Source of the DNA: Natrinema salifodinae
GTDB lineage: Archaea; Halobacteriota; Halobacteria; Halobacteriales; Natrialbaceae
NCBI RefSeq assembly: GCF_900110455.1
Contig: NZ_FOIS01000003.1
Span: forward strand, 62,001 to 126,000
Length of the DNA: 64,000 nt
Direction of reading: 5' to 3'
In this document: in pieces, positions 1 to 40,881 of the stretch
How positions within the stretch are numbered: position 1 is the first letter of the stretch
Layout: each line of letters opens with the position of its first letter
The notes under the pieces: model-generated
The model's input: only the letters and a program-made list of their open reading frames with translations
Databases searched by the model: none
What the model was told of the DNA's origin: nothing
Program-made: the position numbers and the translations under genes

Positions 1-903
1 CGGCTCCCGCTGTCGTACGATCTGGGACGGGAGATCCTCGACTTTCAGGGCGAACTCGTCGAGCGCTACGAGGACGGCGGCCCGCCGCGGGTCCGCGCCT
101 GGCTGCGGCAGTTCCCGCTGGACGACGACAGCGTCCGCGCCATCGCCCGGCTGTTCGATCACCAGTGTCGCTACGCCGGGACGGAGAGCGTGAGCGCGCC
201 CGATCGCCTGGCGATCGAGGTCGTCCGGGACCGCGAGGAGTACGAGCGCCACTACTACGTTCACTCGAACTACGGCCGGAAGTTCAACGACGGGCTCTCC
301 CGGCTGCTCGCCTATCGCTGCGCGCAAGCGGCAACGGCGAACGTCCGGATCGCGGTCGCTGACAACGGCTTCGTCCTCTCGATGCCCCTGAACCGGAAGG
401 TCGACATCGAGGGGATCGTCGACGACCTCGAGCCGGACCAGGTCCGCGCGGACCTCCGGGCGGCCCTCTCGGGGACCGACCTGCTCCAGCGGTACTTCCG
501 GATCAACGCGACCAGGTCGCTGATGATCCTCAAGCGCTACAAGGGCTACGAGAAGTCCGCCAGCGAGCAGCAGGTCTCCAGCGAGATGTTGCTCGGCTTC
601 GCCGAGGACCTAGAAGAGTTCGCGGTGATCGAGGAGACCTACCGCGAGATCTTAGAGGACAAGCTGAACGTCGACGAGATCGAGGACGTCGTCGGCGCGA
701 TCGAATCGGGCGACGTGGAAGTCTCCCGACAGCTTCTCGATTCGCCGACGCCGCGGGCGTTCGGCCTGGCGACCCTGTCGGCCAGCGACGTGGTGTTGGC
801 CGAAGACGAGAGCGCTGCACTCCAGTCGTTCCACGAGCACGTTTTAGAAGAGATCGGCGACGAGTCGTTGGCGGGCCTTGCAGCAGGGTCAGACGACGAA
901 TAG
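1..903 (+). CDS. Lhr-type ATP-dependent helicase, C-terminal part (5' end outside window)
   Basis: The reading frame is open from base 1 to a TAG at 901-903, giving about 300 residues of a larger protein. The visible part has no Walker motifs. It resembles the C-terminal accessory region of archaeal Lhr-family superfamily 2 helicases: a YVHSNYGRKFNDGLSRLLAY segment, then an NGFVLSMPLNRK strand and a TDLLQRYFRINATRSLMILKRYKG stretch typical of that family. Lhr enzymes unwind branched DNA or RNA-DNA hybrids during repair. The GTG at 190 lies inside the domain and is not the real start. Assignment rests on family resemblance because the motor domains lie upstream. Confidence 0.8.
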   Translation, partial: RLPLSYDLGREILDFQGELVERYEDGGPPRVRAWLRQFPLDDDSVRAIARLFDHQCRYAGTESVSAPDRLAIEVVRDREEYERHYYVHSNYGRKFNDGLSRLLAYRCAQAATANVRIAVADNGFVLSMPLNRKVDIEGIVDDLEPDQVRADLRAALSGTDLLQRYFRINATRSLMILKRYKGYEKSASEQQVSSEMLLGFAEDLEEFAVIEETYREILEDKLNVDEIEDVVGAIESGDVEVSRQLLDSPTPRAFGLATLSASDVVLAEDESAALQSFHEHVLEEIGDESLAGLAAGSDDE

Positions 904-941
904 CGACCGGACGCCGACGCGATCTCTCCCGATCCGTCGGA

Positions 942-34344: not shown

Positions 34345-35178
34345 ATGCGTGAGGAGGCGACGGCGTTCGTACCCGGACACATCACGGGCTTTTTCAGCGC
34401 ACATCCAGCCGACGATCCGACGAAAGCCGGCTCCCGCGGGGCGGGGCTGACGCTCACCGACGGGGTCGAGGTAACGGTCGAACCGGCCGACGGCGAGGAT
34501 TCGACCGTCGCGCTCGACGGGACGGAGATCGACGTCGATCCGGTGACGACCGTCCTCGAGACGCTCGACGCGACCGCCCGCGTCGAGGCCGACTCCGATC
34601 TCCCCCTGGGGGCCGGCTTCGGCGTCTCGGGCGCGCTGGCGCTCGGCACCGCGCTCGCGGCGAACCGCGTGTTCGAGTGCAAACTCTCGGTGAACGAACT
34701 CGTGACGATCGCCCACGGCGCGGAAGTGCAAGCCGGAACGGGACTCGGCGACGTGGTCGCGCAAGCTCACGGCGGCGTCCCGATCCGCCTCGAGCCGGGG
34801 AGCCCGCAGGAAAACGAACTCGACGCGATCCCGTCGCGGGCGCGCGTCGAGTACGTCTCTTTCGGCGAACTCTCGACGGCCGACGTGCTCTCGGGCGACA
34901 CCGACCAGTTGACCGCCGCCGGCCGAGAGGCGCTCTCGCGGGTCGTCGAAGAGCCGACGCTGCTCTCTTTCATGTACGCCTCGCGGCTGTTCGCGCGCGA
35001 CGCCGGCCTGTTGACCGACCGGGTCACCGAAACGATTGCCGACGTCTCCGCGGCCGACGGCCAGGCGTCGATGGCGATGCTCGGCGAGACCGTCTTCGCG
35101 CTCGGGACGGGGCTGTCCGACGCGGGTTACGAGCCGTCGGTCTGTGCGACGCATCCGGCGGGCGCCGTCCTCAAGTGA
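34345..35178 (+). CDS. Pantoate kinase (GHMP family)
   Basis: A 277-residue GHMP-fold kinase. ATAFVPGHITGFFSAHPADDPTKAGSRGAGLTL and LPLGAGFGVSGALALGTALA (GHMP motif 2, PxGaGxGxSga) are clear, followed by VQAGTGLGDVVAQAHGGVPIR. Pantoate kinase phosphorylates pantoate in the archaeal route to coenzyme A. The next enzyme of that route (4-phosphopantoate-beta-alanine ligase) is present at 40102. The ATG at 34345 lies about 30 bases after an AT-rich ttcaacgttatatcc box. Confidence 0.9.
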   Translation: MREEATAFVPGHITGFFSAHPADDPTKAGSRGAGLTLTDGVEVTVEPADGEDSTVALDGTEIDVDPVTTVLETLDATARVEADSDLPLGAGFGVSGALALGTALAANRVFECKLSVNELVTIAHGAEVQAGTGLGDVVAQAHGGVPIRLEPGSPQENELDAIPSRARVEYVSFGELSTADVLSGDTDQLTAAGREALSRVVEEPTLLSFMYASRLFARDAGLLTDRVTETIADVSAADGQASMAMLGETVFALGTGLSDAGYEPSVCATHPAGAVLK

Positions 35179-35505: not shown

Positions 35506-38421
35506 ATGGCTTCACTGACTGACATTCACCGAAATCTGTTTCAGTTGTACGAACACTACGTCGGGGAACCCGACTCGAGCAAAGACGTCTACGGTTACTG
35601 GCTGTTTATCGTCGGCTACATCATCGGCGCGGCGGGCGTGGCGACCTTCGTCGTCGGATATGCGGGCGAGGGCAACTCCTACGCCCTGATCCGGATCTCG
35701 GGAATTACGGCGGCGACGGGGCTCGCGCTCTGTCTGTTCGGCATCGTCTTGATGTTGCCGGTCCGAAAACGGGGGATTCAGGCCAGTTTCGTCGGCTTGC
35801 TAATCTCGCTGGGGGGCGTCGGCTTCTTCGGGTGGGCGTATCCGTACAACTGGCGCGAACTCGGCGTTGACTACAGCGTCGAGGTTATCTCGGTCTACAC
35901 GTTCGGAATCGGAATCATCGCGGGCGTGACGGCGCTCGTCCCGATCCTCACCGGTCGAAAGGGGATGTTCGTCGAGGAGGAAGGGACGTCAGAAGATCCG
36001 GCGATTCTCACGGGCGACGCAATGGAGAGCGCACAGTTCGCCGTCTTCCGCGACGAGAACGGCGACTGGAAGTGGCACGTCCTCCACCTCGAAGCACTGG
36101 CACAGAGCAACGAGAGCGCCGTCACCCGACCGGATGCGACGGAGGGTATCGAGCGCGTCAAGTCCCAAATCAGCTCCGCGGGCCTGATGGAGTTGACGAC
36201 CTCGGCGTTCCGACTCTACGAGGACCGCGACGGCACGTGGCAGTGGACGCTGGCCCGCGACGACGGCAGCATCGTCGGCGCTTGCGCCGGCGAGTTCGAA
36301 GAGCGCGACGGCGCCGAGGAGTCCGTGAGCTTCCTGAAGGACCGGGGCCCGGACGCCGACGTGATCGAGATCGAAGGTGCGGCGTTCACCTACGAAGAAC
36401 GGCGCGATCAGTGGTACTGGCAGCTAGTCGACGACGACCGCATGCCGTTGGCGTCGAGCGAGCAAGGACACTCGACTCAGGAACGCGCCGAAGAAGCGGC
36501 CCGAACCTTCGCCGAGCGGTTCGACCAGGCGCGGGTGCTCGACATCGAGCACATCGGCATGGAACTGTGCGAGCGGGCCGACGGCTGGACCTGGCGATTC
36601 GTCGACGCCGACGACCGGGTCATCTCGACCAGTACCGACACCTTCGACGCGCGGCGCGACGCCGAAGCGGCCGCCGAAGCGTTGCTGCCGGCACTGGAGT
36701 CGGCGTCGGTCACCGTGGCCGGCGAACCCACGTACGAACTCTACGAGTCCGGCGAGGAGTGGCGCTACCGGCTCGTCGACGAGGCCGAACACGTCGTCGC
36801 GCGCGGGCCCGAAGGGACCGACGACCGCGAGCGTTCGGAGCGGTGGACCGAGCAGTTCGGCGAGAACGCCGTCGAGGCCGACGTCGTCGAGATCGAAGAC
36901 GCCGAATACGAGGTCTATCCGGCCGAGAGCGCGAGCGCGGGCAGTTCCGCGTCCACGCCGGACGACGACCGCGACCTCCCTGCGACGATCGATGCGCCCG
37001 AACCGGCGGCTGACGGCGGGACGGCCGTCGACTCGGCCGGCGACGAGGAGCAGAGCCCGTGGCACTGGCGCCTGGTCACCGACGACCGCGAGGTCGTCGC
37101 CGCGAGCACGGAACCCCACGCCGACGCCGAGTCAGCCACGGCCGCGATCGAGCGCGTCCGCCAACAGGCCAGCGAGGCCGATCTCATCGAGTTCGAGAAC
37201 GCGGCGTTCCAGGTCTACGAGGCCGACTCCGGCGAGTGGCGCTGGCGGCTCATCGACGAGGACGGCAACGTCTTGGCCGACTCCGGCGAGGAACACACCT
37301 CCCGGAACGAGGCCGCCGAGGCGATGATGACGCTGAAAGAGCAGGCTCCCGACGCCGAACTGCTCGAGATCGAGACCGCGGCGTTCGAACTCTTCGTCAA
37401 CGAGGACGACGAGTGGGGCTGGCGGCTCATCGACGAAGCCGGCCAGCTCGTCGCCGAAGACCCCGCGACCCACCCGACCCGCGGGGCCGCTCGCCAGGCG
37501 ATGAACCGCCTGCTCGAGCACCTCGATTCGGACGTGCGGACGATGGACCAGGCGATCTTCCAGACGTACGCGACCGAGGACTGGCACTGGCGGTTCGTCA
37601 TGCCGTCGGGCGAGACCGTGGCCGTCGACGGCCAGGCGTCCCCGACTCGCGACGAACTGGTCGACGGTCTCGACGACGTGCGCGATGTCGCCGCGGCGGC
37701 GCAACGTTACGCGATCGGGGACGTCTCCGTGCAGCTGTACGGAACCGACGAGTGGCGGTTCCGGTTGCTCGACCGCGACCGCGAGGAGATCGCCGATTCG
37801 AACCGCACCTACGACCGCCGCGAGGCGGTGATGGCCGCGGTCGACGAGCTGCAGGCCTACGCGACCGACGCGCCGATCTTCGCGATCGAGGACGCCGCGA
37901 TCCGCCTGCACAGTACCGATGAGGACGACTGGTCGTGGGACCTCGTCGACCACGAGCGCGAGGTGTTCGCGGCCGGCGTCGATGCCACCGGGACCAAGGC
38001 CGGACTGTTCGACGAGATCGAGCAGGTCCGTCAGCTTGCGCCGATGGCCGGCCGGGTCGACTTCGACGTCGCCTCCTTCGAACTGGTCGCCGACGAGGAC
38101 GACCGCTGGCAGTGGCGGCTCATCGACGAGGACGGTCGGACCGTCGCGACCGGTTCCGAGACCCACGAGACGGCCGACGACGCGCGTGCGGCCCTCGAGG
38201 ACGTCCGCGAACTGATCGAGTCGGCGAGCATCCTCGAGATCGACAGCGTCTCGTTCGAACTCCACACCGCCGAGGAAGGCTGGGTCTGGCAGCTGATCGA
38301 CGAGTACGGCGCGACGATGGCCGAGAGCACCCAGACCTACGAGACCCGGACCGCCGCCCGCGAGGCGATGAACGACGTGAAGGCCCACGCGCCCGACGGC
38401 TGGATCACCTTCACGGAGTGA
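35506..38421 (+). CDS. Membrane-anchored protein with about 13 tandem YegP-like (DUF1508) repeats
   Basis: A 971-residue protein. Four membrane segments occupy residues about 28-155 (LFIVGYIIGAAGVATFVVGY, GITAATGLALCLFGIVLM, FVGLLISLGGVGFFGWA and FGIGIIAGVTALVPIL); the N-terminal part is of a haloarchaeal type often written DUF7139. From about residue 172 to the end a roughly 57-residue unit repeats 13 times. The consensus is a short strand (AAFELYE), a W-x-W-x-L-x-D-x-x-G turn, then a helix ending in EIE. I count 13 copies; unit 6 contains a long Ser/Asp-rich insertion, and unit 4 is divergent. YegP proteins normally have one or two units. TTG at 35500 is a possible alternative start. The role is unknown; a lattice or binding surface under the membrane is inference. 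Confidence 0.85.
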   Translation: MASLTDIHRNLFQLYEHYVGEPDSSKDVYGYWLFIVGYIIGAAGVATFVVGYAGEGNSYALIRISGITAATGLALCLFGIVLMLPVRKRGIQASFVGLLISLGGVGFFGWAYPYNWRELGVDYSVEVISVYTFGIGIIAGVTALVPILTGRKGMFVEEEGTSEDPAILTGDAMESAQFAVFRDENGDWKWHVLHLEALAQSNESAVTRPDATEGIERVKSQISSAGLMELTTSAFRLYEDRDGTWQWTLARDDGSIVGACAGEFEERDGAEESVSFLKDRGPDADVIEIEGAAFTYEERRDQWYWQLVDDDRMPLASSEQGHSTQERAEEAARTFAERFDQARVLDIEHIGMELCERADGWTWRFVDADDRVISTSTDTFDARRDAEAAAEALLPALESASVTVAGEPTYELYESGEEWRYRLVDEAEHVVARGPEGTDDRERSERWTEQFGENAVEADVVEIEDAEYEVYPAESASAGSSASTPDDDRDLPATIDAPEPAADGGTAVDSAGDEEQSPWHWRLVTDDREVVAASTEPHADAESATAAIERVRQQASEADLIEFENAAFQVYEADSGEWRWRLIDEDGNVLADSGEEHTSRNEAAEAMMTLKEQAPDAELLEIETAAFELFVNEDDEWGWRLIDEAGQLVAEDPATHPTRGAARQAMNRLLEHLDSDVRTMDQAIFQTYATEDWHWRFVMPSGETVAVDGQASPTRDELVDGLDDVRDVAAAAQRYAIGDVSVQLYGTDEWRFRLLDRDREEIADSNRTYDRREAVMAAVDELQAYATDAPIFAIEDAAIRLHSTDEDDWSWDLVDHEREVFAAGVDATGTKAGLFDEIEQVRQLAPMAGRVDFDVASFELVADEDDRWQWRLIDEDGRTVATGSETHETADDARAALEDVRELIESASILEIDSVSFELHTAEEGWVWQLIDEYGATMAESTQTYETRTAAREAMNDVKAHAPDGWITFTE

Positions 38422-38531: not shown

Positions 38532-39179
38532 ATGAAATCGATGGGCGTCCGACTGGAATACGCGCCGGGAGCGATTCCGCCGCTCCACGAGGGGATCTGC
38601 AACTCGCCCGACATCGACCGCGAGGTTATCGTCGGCGGCCAGGCGGTCGACGGCGTGGAGACGATCACGTCGTTCGTCGACGGCGAGCCGGCGGCCTACG
38701 AATCGCTGCTGGCAGGACTGGAGACCGTCCGCGAGTACGACATCACGCCGGCCGACGACGGATTCTTCCTGTACCTCCGGCGCGACCTCGGTTCAGAGGG
38801 CGCGTCGCTGCTGGACGCGCTCGCACGGGAGACGGTCGTGGTCGTGCCGCCGATCGAGGTCCGGTCCGATCGAACGATTCGACTGACCGTCGTCGGGCAC
38901 CCGTCCGCCCTCACCGACGTGATGGACGAGGTGCCCGACGGCATTCGACTCGACGTGCAGTGGGTTAGTCAGGACGTGACGGTCTCGGAGTCACCGCTCT
39001 CCGATCGCCAGAGAGCGGCCCTCCGGGCCGCGCGGGACGTCGGATTCTACGAAATCCCGCGCGAGGCCGGGATCGAGGCGGTCGCCGACGAACTCGGGTG
39101 TGCCGTCTCGACGGCGTCGGAACTCGTCCGTCGCGGCGAGGCGAACGCGGTCCGACGGACCCTCGAGGACGGCCCGTAG
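38532..39179 (+). CDS. HTH-10 family regulator
   Basis: A 215-residue regulator starting MKSMGVRLEYAPGAIPPLHEGICNSPDI. The N-terminal input half has strand-rich sequence (EVIVGGQAVDGVETITSFVDGE, FFLYLRRDLGSEGASLLDALARETVVVVPP). The C-terminal HTH-10 domain is present but variant: LSDRQRAALRAARDVGFYEIPREAGIEAVADELGCAVSTASELVRR. The ATG at 38532 was chosen over 38505 because it starts the family pattern and follows TTTGACC and a CG-rich step. It is 110 bases downstream of the YegP-repeat protein, on the same strand. Confidence 0.83.
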   Translation: MKSMGVRLEYAPGAIPPLHEGICNSPDIDREVIVGGQAVDGVETITSFVDGEPAAYESLLAGLETVREYDITPADDGFFLYLRRDLGSEGASLLDALARETVVVVPPIEVRSDRTIRLTVVGHPSALTDVMDEVPDGIRLDVQWVSQDVTVSESPLSDRQRAALRAARDVGFYEIPREAGIEAVADELGCAVSTASELVRRGEANAVRRTLEDGP

Positions 39180-39187
39180 GCAGCCGA

Positions 39188-39880
39188 TCAAGCCGCGTCC
39201 CGTTTCGTACAGACCGCCGTGTACGCGGACCCGGCGAGATAGGTGTCGACGATCTCGCACTCGTCGAAGACGGCGGCGAGCGACCCCGCGACGTCGCCGT
39301 CGGGGTTCCAGTTCGCGTACCAGCGGAAGAACCGCCACAGGAGGGGGTTCAGAATTCGAGCGGGGCCGCTCGGAATCGTCCGGAGGGCGAGGACGACGAA
39401 CCGACCCCCCGGTGCGAGCGATCGGTAGACGGTCTCGGTCGCCCGGCGAATGTCGGGCATGCACGAGAGCGAGAGCGTCGCGAGCGCCGCGTCGAACGGC
39501 TCGTCGAAATCGGCCGTCGTCGCGTCGGCCAGGCGCACCTCGATGTTCTCCCAGCCGCGGGGTTCGATCCGGTCCCGCGCGTTCGCGACCATTCCCGGGC
39601 TGTAGTCGACGGCGACGAGTTCCCCACCCGCGCCGATCTCGTTGCGAACCCGCTCGAAGTTGACTCCGGGACCGGGGCCGATCTCGAGCACGCGATCGCC
39701 TGGCTCGAGGCGCAGGTGGTCGATCGCCGCTTCGCGCGCGGGTTCGAAGTCTCGCTCGCTGAGCCCGTAGTAGTCGCTCCATCGGTCCCAGACCGCGCGG
39801 CTCCGCTCGAGGTGCGCCCGGTAGCGGTCGTCCGAGTCGCGGCTCCCGTCGGGGCGGTCCGGATTTCGACCCGTCTCCAT
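39188..39880 (-). CDS. Class I SAM-dependent methyltransferase
   Basis: A 230-residue methyltransferase. DRVLEIGPGPGVNFE is SAM motif I, ELVAVDYSPGMVANARDRI motif II and FDAALATLSLSCMPDIRRATETVYRSLAPGGRFVVLAL the substrate-side motifs. It resembles the UbiE/small-molecule methyltransferase group that is common in haloarchaea. The substrate is not apparent. It is convergent with the HTH-10 gene, with only 8 bases between the stops. Confidence 0.87.
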   Translation of the reverse strand: METGRNPDRPDGSRDSDDRYRAHLERSRAVWDRWSDYYGLSERDFEPAREAAIDHLRLEPGDRVLEIGPGPGVNFERVRNEIGAGGELVAVDYSPGMVANARDRIEPRGWENIEVRLADATTADFDEPFDAALATLSLSCMPDIRRATETVYRSLAPGGRFVVLALRTIPSGPARILNPLLWRFFRWYANWNPDGDVAGSLAAVFDECEIVDTYLAGSAYTAVCTKRDAA

Positions 39881-40101: not shown

Positions 40102-40881
40102 GTGACCGACTACGACACCGTCTCCGCCGACGTCGAGAGCGAGGAGGAGATCCCGGAGGATCACCCCCGCTATCAGGATCTGCTCACTCGCCACCGGATC
40201 GAGGAGGGCGTCGAGAAGGGGATCACGCACCTGCAGGGGATGCACGCCGAGGGGCGGGGCAGCGCGTTCGACTACCTGCTGGGCGAGGAGACCATCCCGA
40301 GCGCCGACGCTGCCGAGCGGGCCGCCGCGGCCCACCTCCTGCTCGCCGACCACCCCGTGCTCTCGATCAACGGCAACGTCGCGGCCCTGGTCCCCGGCGA
40401 GATGGCCGCCCTCGCCGACGTCACGGGTGCCGACCTCGAAGTCAACCTCTTCAATCGGACGCCCGAGCGCATCGAGGCCATCGCCGACCACCTCCGCGAG
40501 CACGACGCCACGGATGTCAAAGGACTCGAGGCCGACGCCCGCATACCGAATCTGGACCACCAGCGCGCGAAGGTCGACGCCGACGGGATCTACGACGCCG
40601 ACGTCGTGCTCGTCCCCCTCGAGGACGGCGACCGCGCCGAGGCCCTAGACGAGATGGGCAAAACCGAGATCGTGATCGACCTCAACCCGCTGTCGCGCTC
40701 GCCCCAGGTCGCCGACGTCCCGATCGTCGACAACATCATCCGTGCAGTGCCGAACATCACCGCCCACGCGCGGGATCTGGCGGACGCCGACGAGGACACA
40801 CTCCGCGAGATCGTCGCGGACTTCGATCGCCAGGCGGCCCTCGAGGAGGCCGAGGAACGGATTCGATCGGGCGACCTGTAA
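40102..40881 (+). CDS. 4-phosphopantoate-beta-alanine ligase (phosphopantothenate synthetase)
   Basis: A 259-residue protein of the archaeal phosphopantothenate synthetase family: EDHPRYQDLLTRHRIEEGVEKGITHLQGMHAEGRGSAFDYLLGE, PVLSINGNVAALVPGEMAALA, LEVNLFNRTPERIEAIADHLREH and IVIDLNPLSRSPQVADVPIVDNIIRAVPNI. It ligates 4-phosphopantoate and beta-alanine using ATP. It starts at a GTG (40102) about 15 bases from an AT step (gatcgtgaccgac). It completes the archaeal CoA route with pantoate kinase at 34345; the two are 5 kb apart here. Confidence 0.9.
   Translation: MTDYDTVSADVESEEEIPEDHPRYQDLLTRHRIEEGVEKGITHLQGMHAEGRGSAFDYLLGEETIPSADAAERAAAAHLLLADHPVLSINGNVAALVPGEMAALADVTGADLEVNLFNRTPERIEAIADHLREHDATDVKGLEADARIPNLDHQRAKVDADGIYDADVVLVPLEDGDRAEALDEMGKTEIVIDLNPLSRSPQVADVPIVDNIIRAVPNITAHARDLADADEDTLREIVADFDRQAALEEAEERIRSGDL

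What the first reader, a model, noticed from the sequence alone, without database searches (positions are those of the whole stretch)
36010..38418. Thirteen tandem YegP-like repeats on a four-helix membrane anchor
I can align 13 units of about 57 residues, each with W-x-W-x-L-x-D and a helix ending near E-I-E. Families with this domain normally contain one or two units in small soluble proteins. Here they form an 800-residue array after four membrane helices. The array suggests a large binding or scaffold surface at the membrane. Its neighbour downstream is an HTH-10 regulator.
Basis: partly seen in the sequence, partly recalled or inferred. Interest (0 to 1): 0.6.

Follow-up and report, generated by a model that had tools for sequence, protein, structure and literature searches.

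The report
Membrane-anchored thirteen-unit YegP repeat protein
A salt-loving archaeon makes a membrane protein that carries exactly thirteen copies of a small domain of unknown function, probably folded back on itself into a rod inside the cell; its relatives across several families keep the same number of copies and usually keep the gene between two coenzyme A synthesis genes.

Summary
Confirmed: one 971-aa gene (35506-38421, +) joins a four-helix DUF7139 anchor to 13 DUF1508/HVO_2922-type units. All 13 units hit the HVO_2922 model (E 1e-16 to 0.019); 11 of 13 hit Pfam DUF1508. The predicted fold is YegP's (Z 14.8).

New here: (1) The number is frozen, not variable. Of 132 distinct repeat ORFs fetched, 121 have 13 units; a sister class has exactly 5. 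(2) Units are individually ancient: same-slot best matches between families in 63-65% of comparisons (chance 7.7%). Unit 7 is by far the most conserved. (3) The array appears to fold back on itself. In the AlphaFold model unit i packs on unit 14-i, and unit-level covariation also favours nested antiparallel pairing, though best in register 15. (4) The gene sits between pantoate kinase and phosphopantothenate synthetase in 28 of 36 carrier genomes. The HTH neighbour is conserved in only 3 of 31.

Best reading: a membrane-tethered cytoplasmic stalk whose number is locked by fold-back pairing, with conserved unit 7 at the tip. A solved analogue exists: the Cis12 connector of a thylakoid-anchored injection system. 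Molecular function is inferred, untested.

The parts
35506..38421 (+). Whole gene, 971 aa: DUF7139 membrane anchor + 13 DUF1508/HVO_2922-type units
35533..35964 (+). DUF7139, four hydrophobic helices (residues 10-153); charges suggest both ends in the cytoplasm
   Evidence: topology is inference
36019..36189 (+). Unit 1 (residues 172-228)
36187..36363 (+). Unit 2 (residues 228-286)
36364..36537 (+). Unit 3 (residues 287-344)
36538..36714 (+). Unit 4 (residues 345-403)
36715..36888 (+). Unit 5 (residues 404-461); no Pfam match, HVO_2922 model E 1.3e-7
36889..37188 (+). Unit 6 (residues 462-561), with a disordered insertion in its first hairpin
36922..37056 (+). Low-confidence insertion inside unit 6 (about residues 473-517), missing from several homologues
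37186..37362 (+). Unit 7 (residues 561-619), the most conserved and most HVO_2922-like unit; tip of the proposed hairpin
37363..37536 (+). Unit 8 (residues 620-677)
37537..37707 (+). Unit 9 (residues 678-734)
37708..37878 (+). Unit 10 (residues 735-791)
37879..38058 (+). Unit 11 (residues 792-851); no Pfam match, HVO_2922 model E 0.019
38059..38235 (+). Unit 12 (residues 852-910)
38233..38418 (+). Unit 13 (residues 910-971)
34345..35178 (+). Upstream gene: GHMP kinase, closest solved relative pantoate kinase 6jbc (E 6e-31); conserved neighbour
40102..40881 (+). Downstream gene: phosphopantothenate synthetase (PF02006, 250.7 bits); conserved neighbour
38532..39179 (+). Downstream HVO_0513_N + HTH_10 regulator; not a conserved neighbour (3 of 31 loci)
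39188..39880 (-). Methyltransferase between the regulator and phosphopantothenate synthetase; not conserved (2 of 31 loci)

Best explanation
The protein is a membrane-tethered cytoplasmic stalk. DUF7139 (four helices, both ends probably inside) anchors it. The 13 YegP-type units do not hang as a string of beads: they fold back into a nested antiparallel hairpin, unit i of the outgoing arm packing on its counterpart in the returning arm in the manner of the two halves of YegP, so that the array is a rod about six pairs long with unit 7 at its distal turn. Fold-back pairing explains why the number is frozen: gain or loss of one unit would shift every pair. The rod holds the conserved, HVO_2922-like unit 7 at a set distance from the membrane, where it docks a partner: a second copy of itself, a free HVO_2922-type protein, or an enzyme such as those of coenzyme A synthesis encoded on either side. 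Shown here: domain content, fixed number, slot-wise ancestry, conservation of unit 7, gene order. Supported by prediction and statistics: YegP fold, fold-back. Inferred: cytoplasmic side, docking at unit 7, any role in coenzyme A synthesis.
For: Fixed number: 13 units in 121 of 132 distinct repeat ORFs, including homologues at 36-45% identity and paralogues that lost part of the anchor; a sister class has 5 in 30 of 30 loci. Slot ancestry: same-slot best match in 1856 of 2860 and 1812 of 2860 comparisons between Natrialbaceae and other families, unit 7 in 220 of 220 each way. Unit 7 has 29 of 57 columns at least 90% conserved, the next best unit 17 (16 representatives). Fold: model pLDDT 82.7; Z 14.8 over 110 residues to SO3888 and 14.3 over 111 to YegP. 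Fold-back: the aligned ranges run from unit 2 to 12/13, 3 to 11, 4 to 10, 5 to 9 and 6 to 8, while the HVO_2922 structure matches unit 7 alone. Covariation over 121 proteins: the two antidiagonals i+j=14 and 15 are the highest in most settings (label permutation p 0.0004-0.003), and the five strongest unit pairs are 7-8, 6-9, 5-10, 3-11 and 2-12; register 15 alone reaches p 0.0036 in close and 0.0064 in distant homologues taken apart, while tandem-neighbour and parallel models do not reach 0.1 in the full set. Analogue: the Cis12 extension that joins a baseplate to the thylakoid membrane carries YegP-like units.
Against: Global confidence of the model is moderate (pTM 0.58). I had no coordinates, so pairing is read from the first and last aligned residues only. 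The model gives register 14 (unit 7 unpaired); covariation is more robust for register 15 (unit 1 unpaired, 7-8 paired), and register 14 is not significant in either subset alone (p 0.40 and 0.42). Pooled column-level covariation was not significant (p 0.10 and 0.22). The 5-unit model pairs neighbours 3 and 4 and leaves unit 1 free. No partner is known. Some relatives lack the gene altogether, so it is dispensable.
Confidence: 0.45

Rival explanations
1. Multivalent docking or enzyme scaffold: each of the 13 units binds its own ligand or protein, and the array gathers many copies at the membrane.
For: Thirteen related units on one anchor; each slot has diverged and is conserved in its own way, as expected of different partners.
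Against: The DSG-type stretch of HVO_2922 is kept only in unit 7 (slot consensus); other slots mostly keep the W-x-W core. A binding array would tolerate varying numbers, but the number is fixed.
Confidence: 0.2
2. Local role in coenzyme A synthesis: a membrane platform or regulator for pantoate kinase and phosphopantothenate synthetase.
For: Between the two genes, same strand, in 28 of 36 carrier genomes of four families, next to one of them in 4 more; array to synthetase distance 42-123 bp in 15 of 26 loci; a relic of the array lies between the same two genes in G130.
Against: The two enzymes are neighbours (PoK to PPS within 500 bp) in 60 of 109 genomes without the array, so they do not need it. 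Four carriers have it elsewhere. In the loci read, array and neighbours look like separate transcription units: 322 bp to the upstream gene in the window, a T-run after the array in L091. Long vertical descent can keep a place without a shared role.
Confidence: 0.15
3. Stress-response or DNA-repair accessory protein, as the free YegP/HVO_2922 proteins are sometimes annotated.
For: HVO_2922 is listed among perchlorate-induced repair genes (PMC12175516, passage); yegP is a stress hub (PMC9501238, passages).
Against: Those are expression lists, not mechanisms; nothing links the 13-unit protein to them.
Confidence: 0.08
4. Plain string of tandem YegP-type pairs (1-2, 3-4, ...) with no special higher order; fixed number is chance or descent.
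For: YegP itself is a tandem pair, and the 5-unit model pairs neighbours 3 and 4.
Against: Tandem-neighbour models have no significant covariation in the full set (p 0.19 and 0.44) and the 13-unit model pairs distant units. Thirteen is odd.
Confidence: 0.12

Closest known systems
YegP (2k8e) and SO3888 (2k49), UPF0339/DUF1508, two units, soluble
   Same: Unit fold and two-unit packing (Z 14.3 and 14.8)
   Different: Two units, no anchor; here 13 units that pair across the chain rather than with the next unit in the model
HVO_2922 (6q2z) of Haloferax volcanii, one unit
   Same: 39% identity over 59 columns to the model in Foldseek, best with unit 7
   Different: Single small soluble protein; only unit 7 resembles it closely
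DUF7139 + five DUF1508 units, haloarchaea
   Same: Same anchor family and units; fixed number (5 in 30 of 30 loci); DUF7139 above cut-off in 3 of 3 scanned
   Different: All five units keep HVO_2922-like motifs; a long helix between anchor and unit 1 in the model; other genome positions
DUF7139 + DUF7140 proteins of about 300-370 aa
   Same: Same membrane anchor
   Different: Cysteine-rich DUF7140 tail instead of the array
Cis12/All3315 of the Anabaena thylakoid-anchored injection system (7b5h)
   Same: YegP-like units in the extension that links baseplate to membrane (profile E 7e-6, Z 8.4 over 113 residues; aligned chain range 620-1161 against units 6 and 8, which suggests that its first and last units pair too)
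   Different: Part of a baseplate protein; no DUF7139; bacterial; the paper text holds no mention of DUF1508 or YegP

Membership tests
Pfam PF07411 DUF1508 (YegP/UPF0339) | Profile score over the curated cut-off | tested here: met
   231.7 bits against 22 for the whole protein; singly 11 of 13 units match, 6 over the cut-off
Pfam PF07411 DUF1508 (YegP/UPF0339) | YegP fold | tested here: met
   Predicted model, Z 14.8 and 14.3 to solved YegP-type proteins over 110-111 residues at 2.0-2.5 A
Pfam PF23600 DUF7139 | Profile score over the curated cut-off, four helices | tested here: met
   143.5 bits against 30, residues 10-153; helices
NCBIfam NF041908 HVO_2922 (equivalog) | Whole-protein score over 90 bits | tested here: met
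   281.6 bits, but only as a sum over 11 stretches
NCBIfam NF041908 HVO_2922 (equivalog) | A single unit that reaches the cut-off, as in the small protein | tested here: not met
   Best single unit, unit 7, has 60.8 bits against 90; so it is not filed as an HVO_2922 equivalog
Cis12-type baseplate proteins | Baseplate domain beside the YegP-like units | tested here: inconclusive
   Pfam finds only DUF7139 and DUF1508 over their cut-offs; structural rows match only the YegP-like part
Fold-back (nested hairpin) YegP arrays | Unit i packs on unit N+1-i | tested here: inconclusive
   Model and covariation agree on fold-back but not on register; no coordinates seen
Coenzyme A synthesis machinery | Physical or functional link to pantoate kinase or phosphopantothenate synthetase | not testable with these tools
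   Only gene order was measured

The most novel reading that the evidence does not exclude
A tandem-repeat protein whose copy number is locked by its own topology: 13 units zip into a nested hairpin stalk on the cytoplasmic face of the membrane and present one conserved unit at the tip, there organising or gating the two archaea-specific coenzyme A enzymes encoded on either side. The same building principle, YegP-type units folding back into a membrane connector, would be shared with the Cis12 arm of thylakoid-anchored injection systems.
Probability: 0.15. Interest if true: 0.7.

Novelty: new variant of a known kind. Interest (0 to 1): 0.5.

Why it matters
Tandem repeat arrays usually drift in copy number. 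Here the number is constant across families at 36-45% identity and in anchor-less paralogues, while a sister class is fixed at 5. If fold-back pairing is the reason, it is a simple, testable rule for when repeat number can and cannot change. It would also give DUF1508 a first architectural role (membrane stalk) and offers a handle on two families without known function, DUF1508 and DUF7139, in genetically tractable haloarchaea.

Tried and rejected
Copy-number variation by duplication: rejected. The ORFs that do not have 13 units are: two pieces of one frameshifted gene (L056, Natrinema thermotolerans, 9 and 5 units), L102 (12; unit 1 below detection), L205 (11) and L220 (5), both on short contig ends, five members of the 5-unit class (L105, L106, L108, L109, L110) and one 2-unit protein (L114).

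HTH-10 regulator as functional partner: not supported, 3 of 31 loci. Recent lateral spread of the gene: not supported between families, since f1, f7 and f3 each form one side of a fully supported branch in the array tree (26 rows); the matching synthetase tree has few supported branches and puts one f1 row (L079) and two f7 rows elsewhere, so it does not confirm the species order.

Column-level contacts between paired units: not significant. Whether register 14 or 15 is right could not be settled. In one search eleven pairing models were tried on four sequence sets; p values are not corrected for that. Hairpin 16 reached p 0.036 in the distant set and 'all adjacent' 0.042 at the 62% weighting. 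One search examined only + strand ORFs (20 of 30 loci) and was replaced. One search's count of the DSG motif looked at the wrong columns; I use only its slot consensus lines.

Literature: searches for DUF7139 (0 papers), DUF1508 (2), UPF0339 (5), HVO_2922 (4) and YegP (18) in the held open library listed no paper on this multi-unit protein; I read passages of only some of them. The HVO_2922 structure paper is not held; that the protein is a homodimer is recalled.

Absence of other families in the structural lists proves nothing.
Full report
OBSERVATION. The window holds one gene at 35506-38421 (+), 971 aa. Residues 10-153 match Pfam DUF7139 (143.5 bits, cut-off 30) and the rest matches DUF1508 (231.7 bits, cut-off 22). 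Thirteen W-x-W-type motifs are spaced 56-59 residues apart, with one gap of 100. Scanned one by one, all 13 units match the HVO_2922 model of NCBIfam (E 9e-17 for unit 7 to 0.019 for unit 11) and 11 of 13 match Pfam DUF1508, 6 above its cut-off. The nearest solved sequence is HVO_2922, 6q2z (E 5.5e-10, residues 565-621, that is unit 7).

THE GAP OF 100 is not a linker. In the AlphaFold2 model (pLDDT 82.7, pTM 0.58, 37-row alignment) strand 466-472 is the first strand of unit 6, followed by a low-confidence stretch up to about residue 517 and then the rest of unit 6. Several homologues have unit 6 without the insertion (L084, L086, L087, L089-L092). The array is therefore gapless.

NUMBER. In 37 full-length homologues and paralogues from four families, 36 show 13 units and one shows 12, its first unit being below detection. 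Over all loci fetched (L038-L221), 121 of 132 distinct repeat ORFs have 13; the exceptions are listed under Tried and rejected. Identity to the window protein falls to 36-37% without change of number. Six paralogues (L099-L104) keep the array while they lack most of the anchor: their N-termini show one or two hydrophobic stretches, and Pfam finds no DUF7139 in the two that were scanned (L099, L101). A second class with the same anchor has 5 units in 30 of 30 loci and is found in 52 of 145 class genomes. Five and 13 are the only multi-unit numbers seen in intact members of these two classes; one 2-unit protein and single-unit proteins exist besides.

ANCESTRY OF UNITS. Comparing Natrialbaceae (f1) units with those of other families, the best match in another protein is the same slot in 1856 of 2860 comparisons, and in 1812 of 2860 the other way; chance is 1 in 13. 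Paralogues to f1: 1354 of 1540; other families to paralogues: only 312 of 858. Slot 7 is right in 220 of 220 both ways, and most mismatches of other slots fall on slot 7, as if it were nearest to the ancestor. In 16 representatives, slot 7 has 29 of 57 columns at least 90% conserved; the next are 17 (slot 2) and 16 (slots 8 and 13). Hence the 13 slots were in place before the families split, and they have not been reshuffled since. The array tree agrees: f1, f7 and f3 are each one side of a fully supported branch (26 rows, midpoint root).

FOLD-BACK. VIA-align matches the model to SO3888 (Z 14.8, 110 residues, 2.0 A) over model residues 232..936 and to YegP (Z 14.3, 111 residues) over 289..855, although those proteins are only about 117 residues long. 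Weaker rows span 231..911, 290..855, 348..793 and 406..738, and the Anabaena baseplate protein spans 467..675 with 113 residues. Read against the unit boundaries, these join units 2 and 12 (the first row runs on into 13), 3 and 11, 4 and 10, 5 and 9, 6 and 8. The single-unit HVO_2922 structure matches 562..616, unit 7 alone. This is the pattern of a hairpin in which unit i packs on unit 14-i. I saw only end points of alignments, not coordinates.

TEST BY COVARIATION. I aligned the 13 units of 121 proteins (Neff 52 at 80%) and computed APC-corrected mutual information between units. After removal of unit effects, antidiagonals i+j=14 and 15 together exceed label permutations (p 0.0003-0.003 for four ways of scoring), and the five highest unit pairs are 7-8, 6-9, 5-10, 3-11 and 2-12. 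Split by identity to the window protein, register 15 holds in both parts (84 close, p 0.0036; 37 distant, p 0.0064), register 14 in neither (p 0.40, 0.42), and tandem or parallel pairings are not significant in the full set. Both registers predict the same hairpin; they differ in whether unit 7 or unit 1 is left over. The predicted 5-unit protein, with neighbours 3 and 4 packed like YegP and unit 1 matching HVO_2922 alone, is the parallel of register 15. I therefore hold fold-back as probable and the register as open. Pooled column-level signals were not significant.

SIDE OF THE MEMBRANE. The loop between helices 2 and 3 has three basic and no acidic residues, and a basic pair follows helix 4; the other loops have none or one. 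By the positive-inside rule (recalled) both ends are inside, so the array is cytoplasmic. This is inference.

NEIGHBOURS. Upstream lies a GHMP kinase whose closest solved relative is pantoate kinase 6jbc (E 6e-31); downstream is phosphopantothenate synthetase (PF02006, 250.7 bits), the two enzymes that replace the bacterial route in archaeal coenzyme A synthesis (PMC6650551, passages). Of 145 genomes sampled in the class, 36 have the full-length array; in 28 of them it lies between the two genes on the same strand within 8 kb, in 4 next to one of them (G104, G116, G033, G140), in 4 elsewhere (G050, G079, G089, G137). In 109 array-less genomes (3 without a synthetase match) the two genes follow each other on one strand within 20 kb in 74, and with a gap of at most 500 bp in 60. 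In G130 a remnant of about two last units with an internal TAG lies between them. The HTH-10 gene is in 3 of 31 loci and the methyltransferase in 2 of 31.

DISTRIBUTION. A strong match (E <= 1e-150; may include paralogues) is in 93 of 125 Natrialbaceae genomes; matches at E <= 1e-60 to a homologue are in 7 of 9 of family f7 and 22 of 146 of family f3. DUF7139 itself is in 280 of 292 class genomes, mostly in proteins of about 300-370 aa, of which one scanned ends in DUF7140.

COMPARISON. The profile of the 37 homologues finds All3315 (7b5h, E 7e-6) and, weakly, Alg12-type baseplate proteins (E 0.14-0.15) among solved chains. All3315 is Cis12; its extra domain forms the wide connector between injection-system baseplate and thylakoid membrane (PMC8894136, passages). 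The structural row pairs chain ends 620 and 1161 with units 6 and 8, which suggests that this solved connector also closes by pairing its first and last YegP-like units. The passages read do not name the fold, and the main text has no occurrence of DUF1508 or YegP.

MECHANISM AND VERDICT. The anatomy fits a membrane-tethered stalk better than a multivalent binding strip: number fixed, only unit 7 keeping the full HVO_2922 pattern, fold-back predicted and supported. What unit 7 binds is unknown. A link to coenzyme A synthesis rests on gene order alone. Public records already call such proteins 'DUF1508 domain-containing protein' (Natrialba magadii plasmid), so the protein is not new; its frozen number, probable hairpin, conserved tip and gene place are, as far as the searches named under Tried and rejected show. 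I rate it a new variant of a known kind.

Noticed in passing
L130-type carriers and array-less genomes; G130:C10:238176-238550 (L107): Relic of the last units of the array with an internal stop, still between the pantoate kinase and phosphopantothenate synthetase genes
   Followed up: partly
L222-L251, L105, L106, L108, L110: Second haloarchaeal class: DUF7139 + exactly five DUF1508 units, with a predicted long helix between anchor and first unit
   Followed up: partly
PDB 7b5h chain AD (All3315/Cis12), residues about 620-1161: YegP-like tandem units in the membrane connector of the Anabaena injection system; the paper's main text has no occurrence of DUF1508 or YegP
   Followed up: partly
L016:1474-2487 and similar (L018-L034): Common DUF7139 proteins end in a cysteine-rich DUF7140 tail (C-x-x-C ... 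C); another soluble part on the same anchor
   Followed up: no
G000:C4:59673-59816 (L001): The window genome's other DUF1508 protein joins an Amphi-Trp domain to a single C-terminal DUF1508 unit
   Followed up: no
L099-L104; Natrialba magadii NC_013924.1: Paralogues with 13 units but a reduced anchor (one or two hydrophobic stretches), one of them on a large plasmid
   Followed up: partly
G025:C51:27698-30686 (L056), Natrinema thermotolerans: Array gene split by an apparent frameshift, natural or a sequencing error
   Followed up: no
G042, G074, G090 (genus g42): Three genomes of one genus have no phosphopantothenate synthetase match and only a weak pantoate kinase match
   Followed up: no
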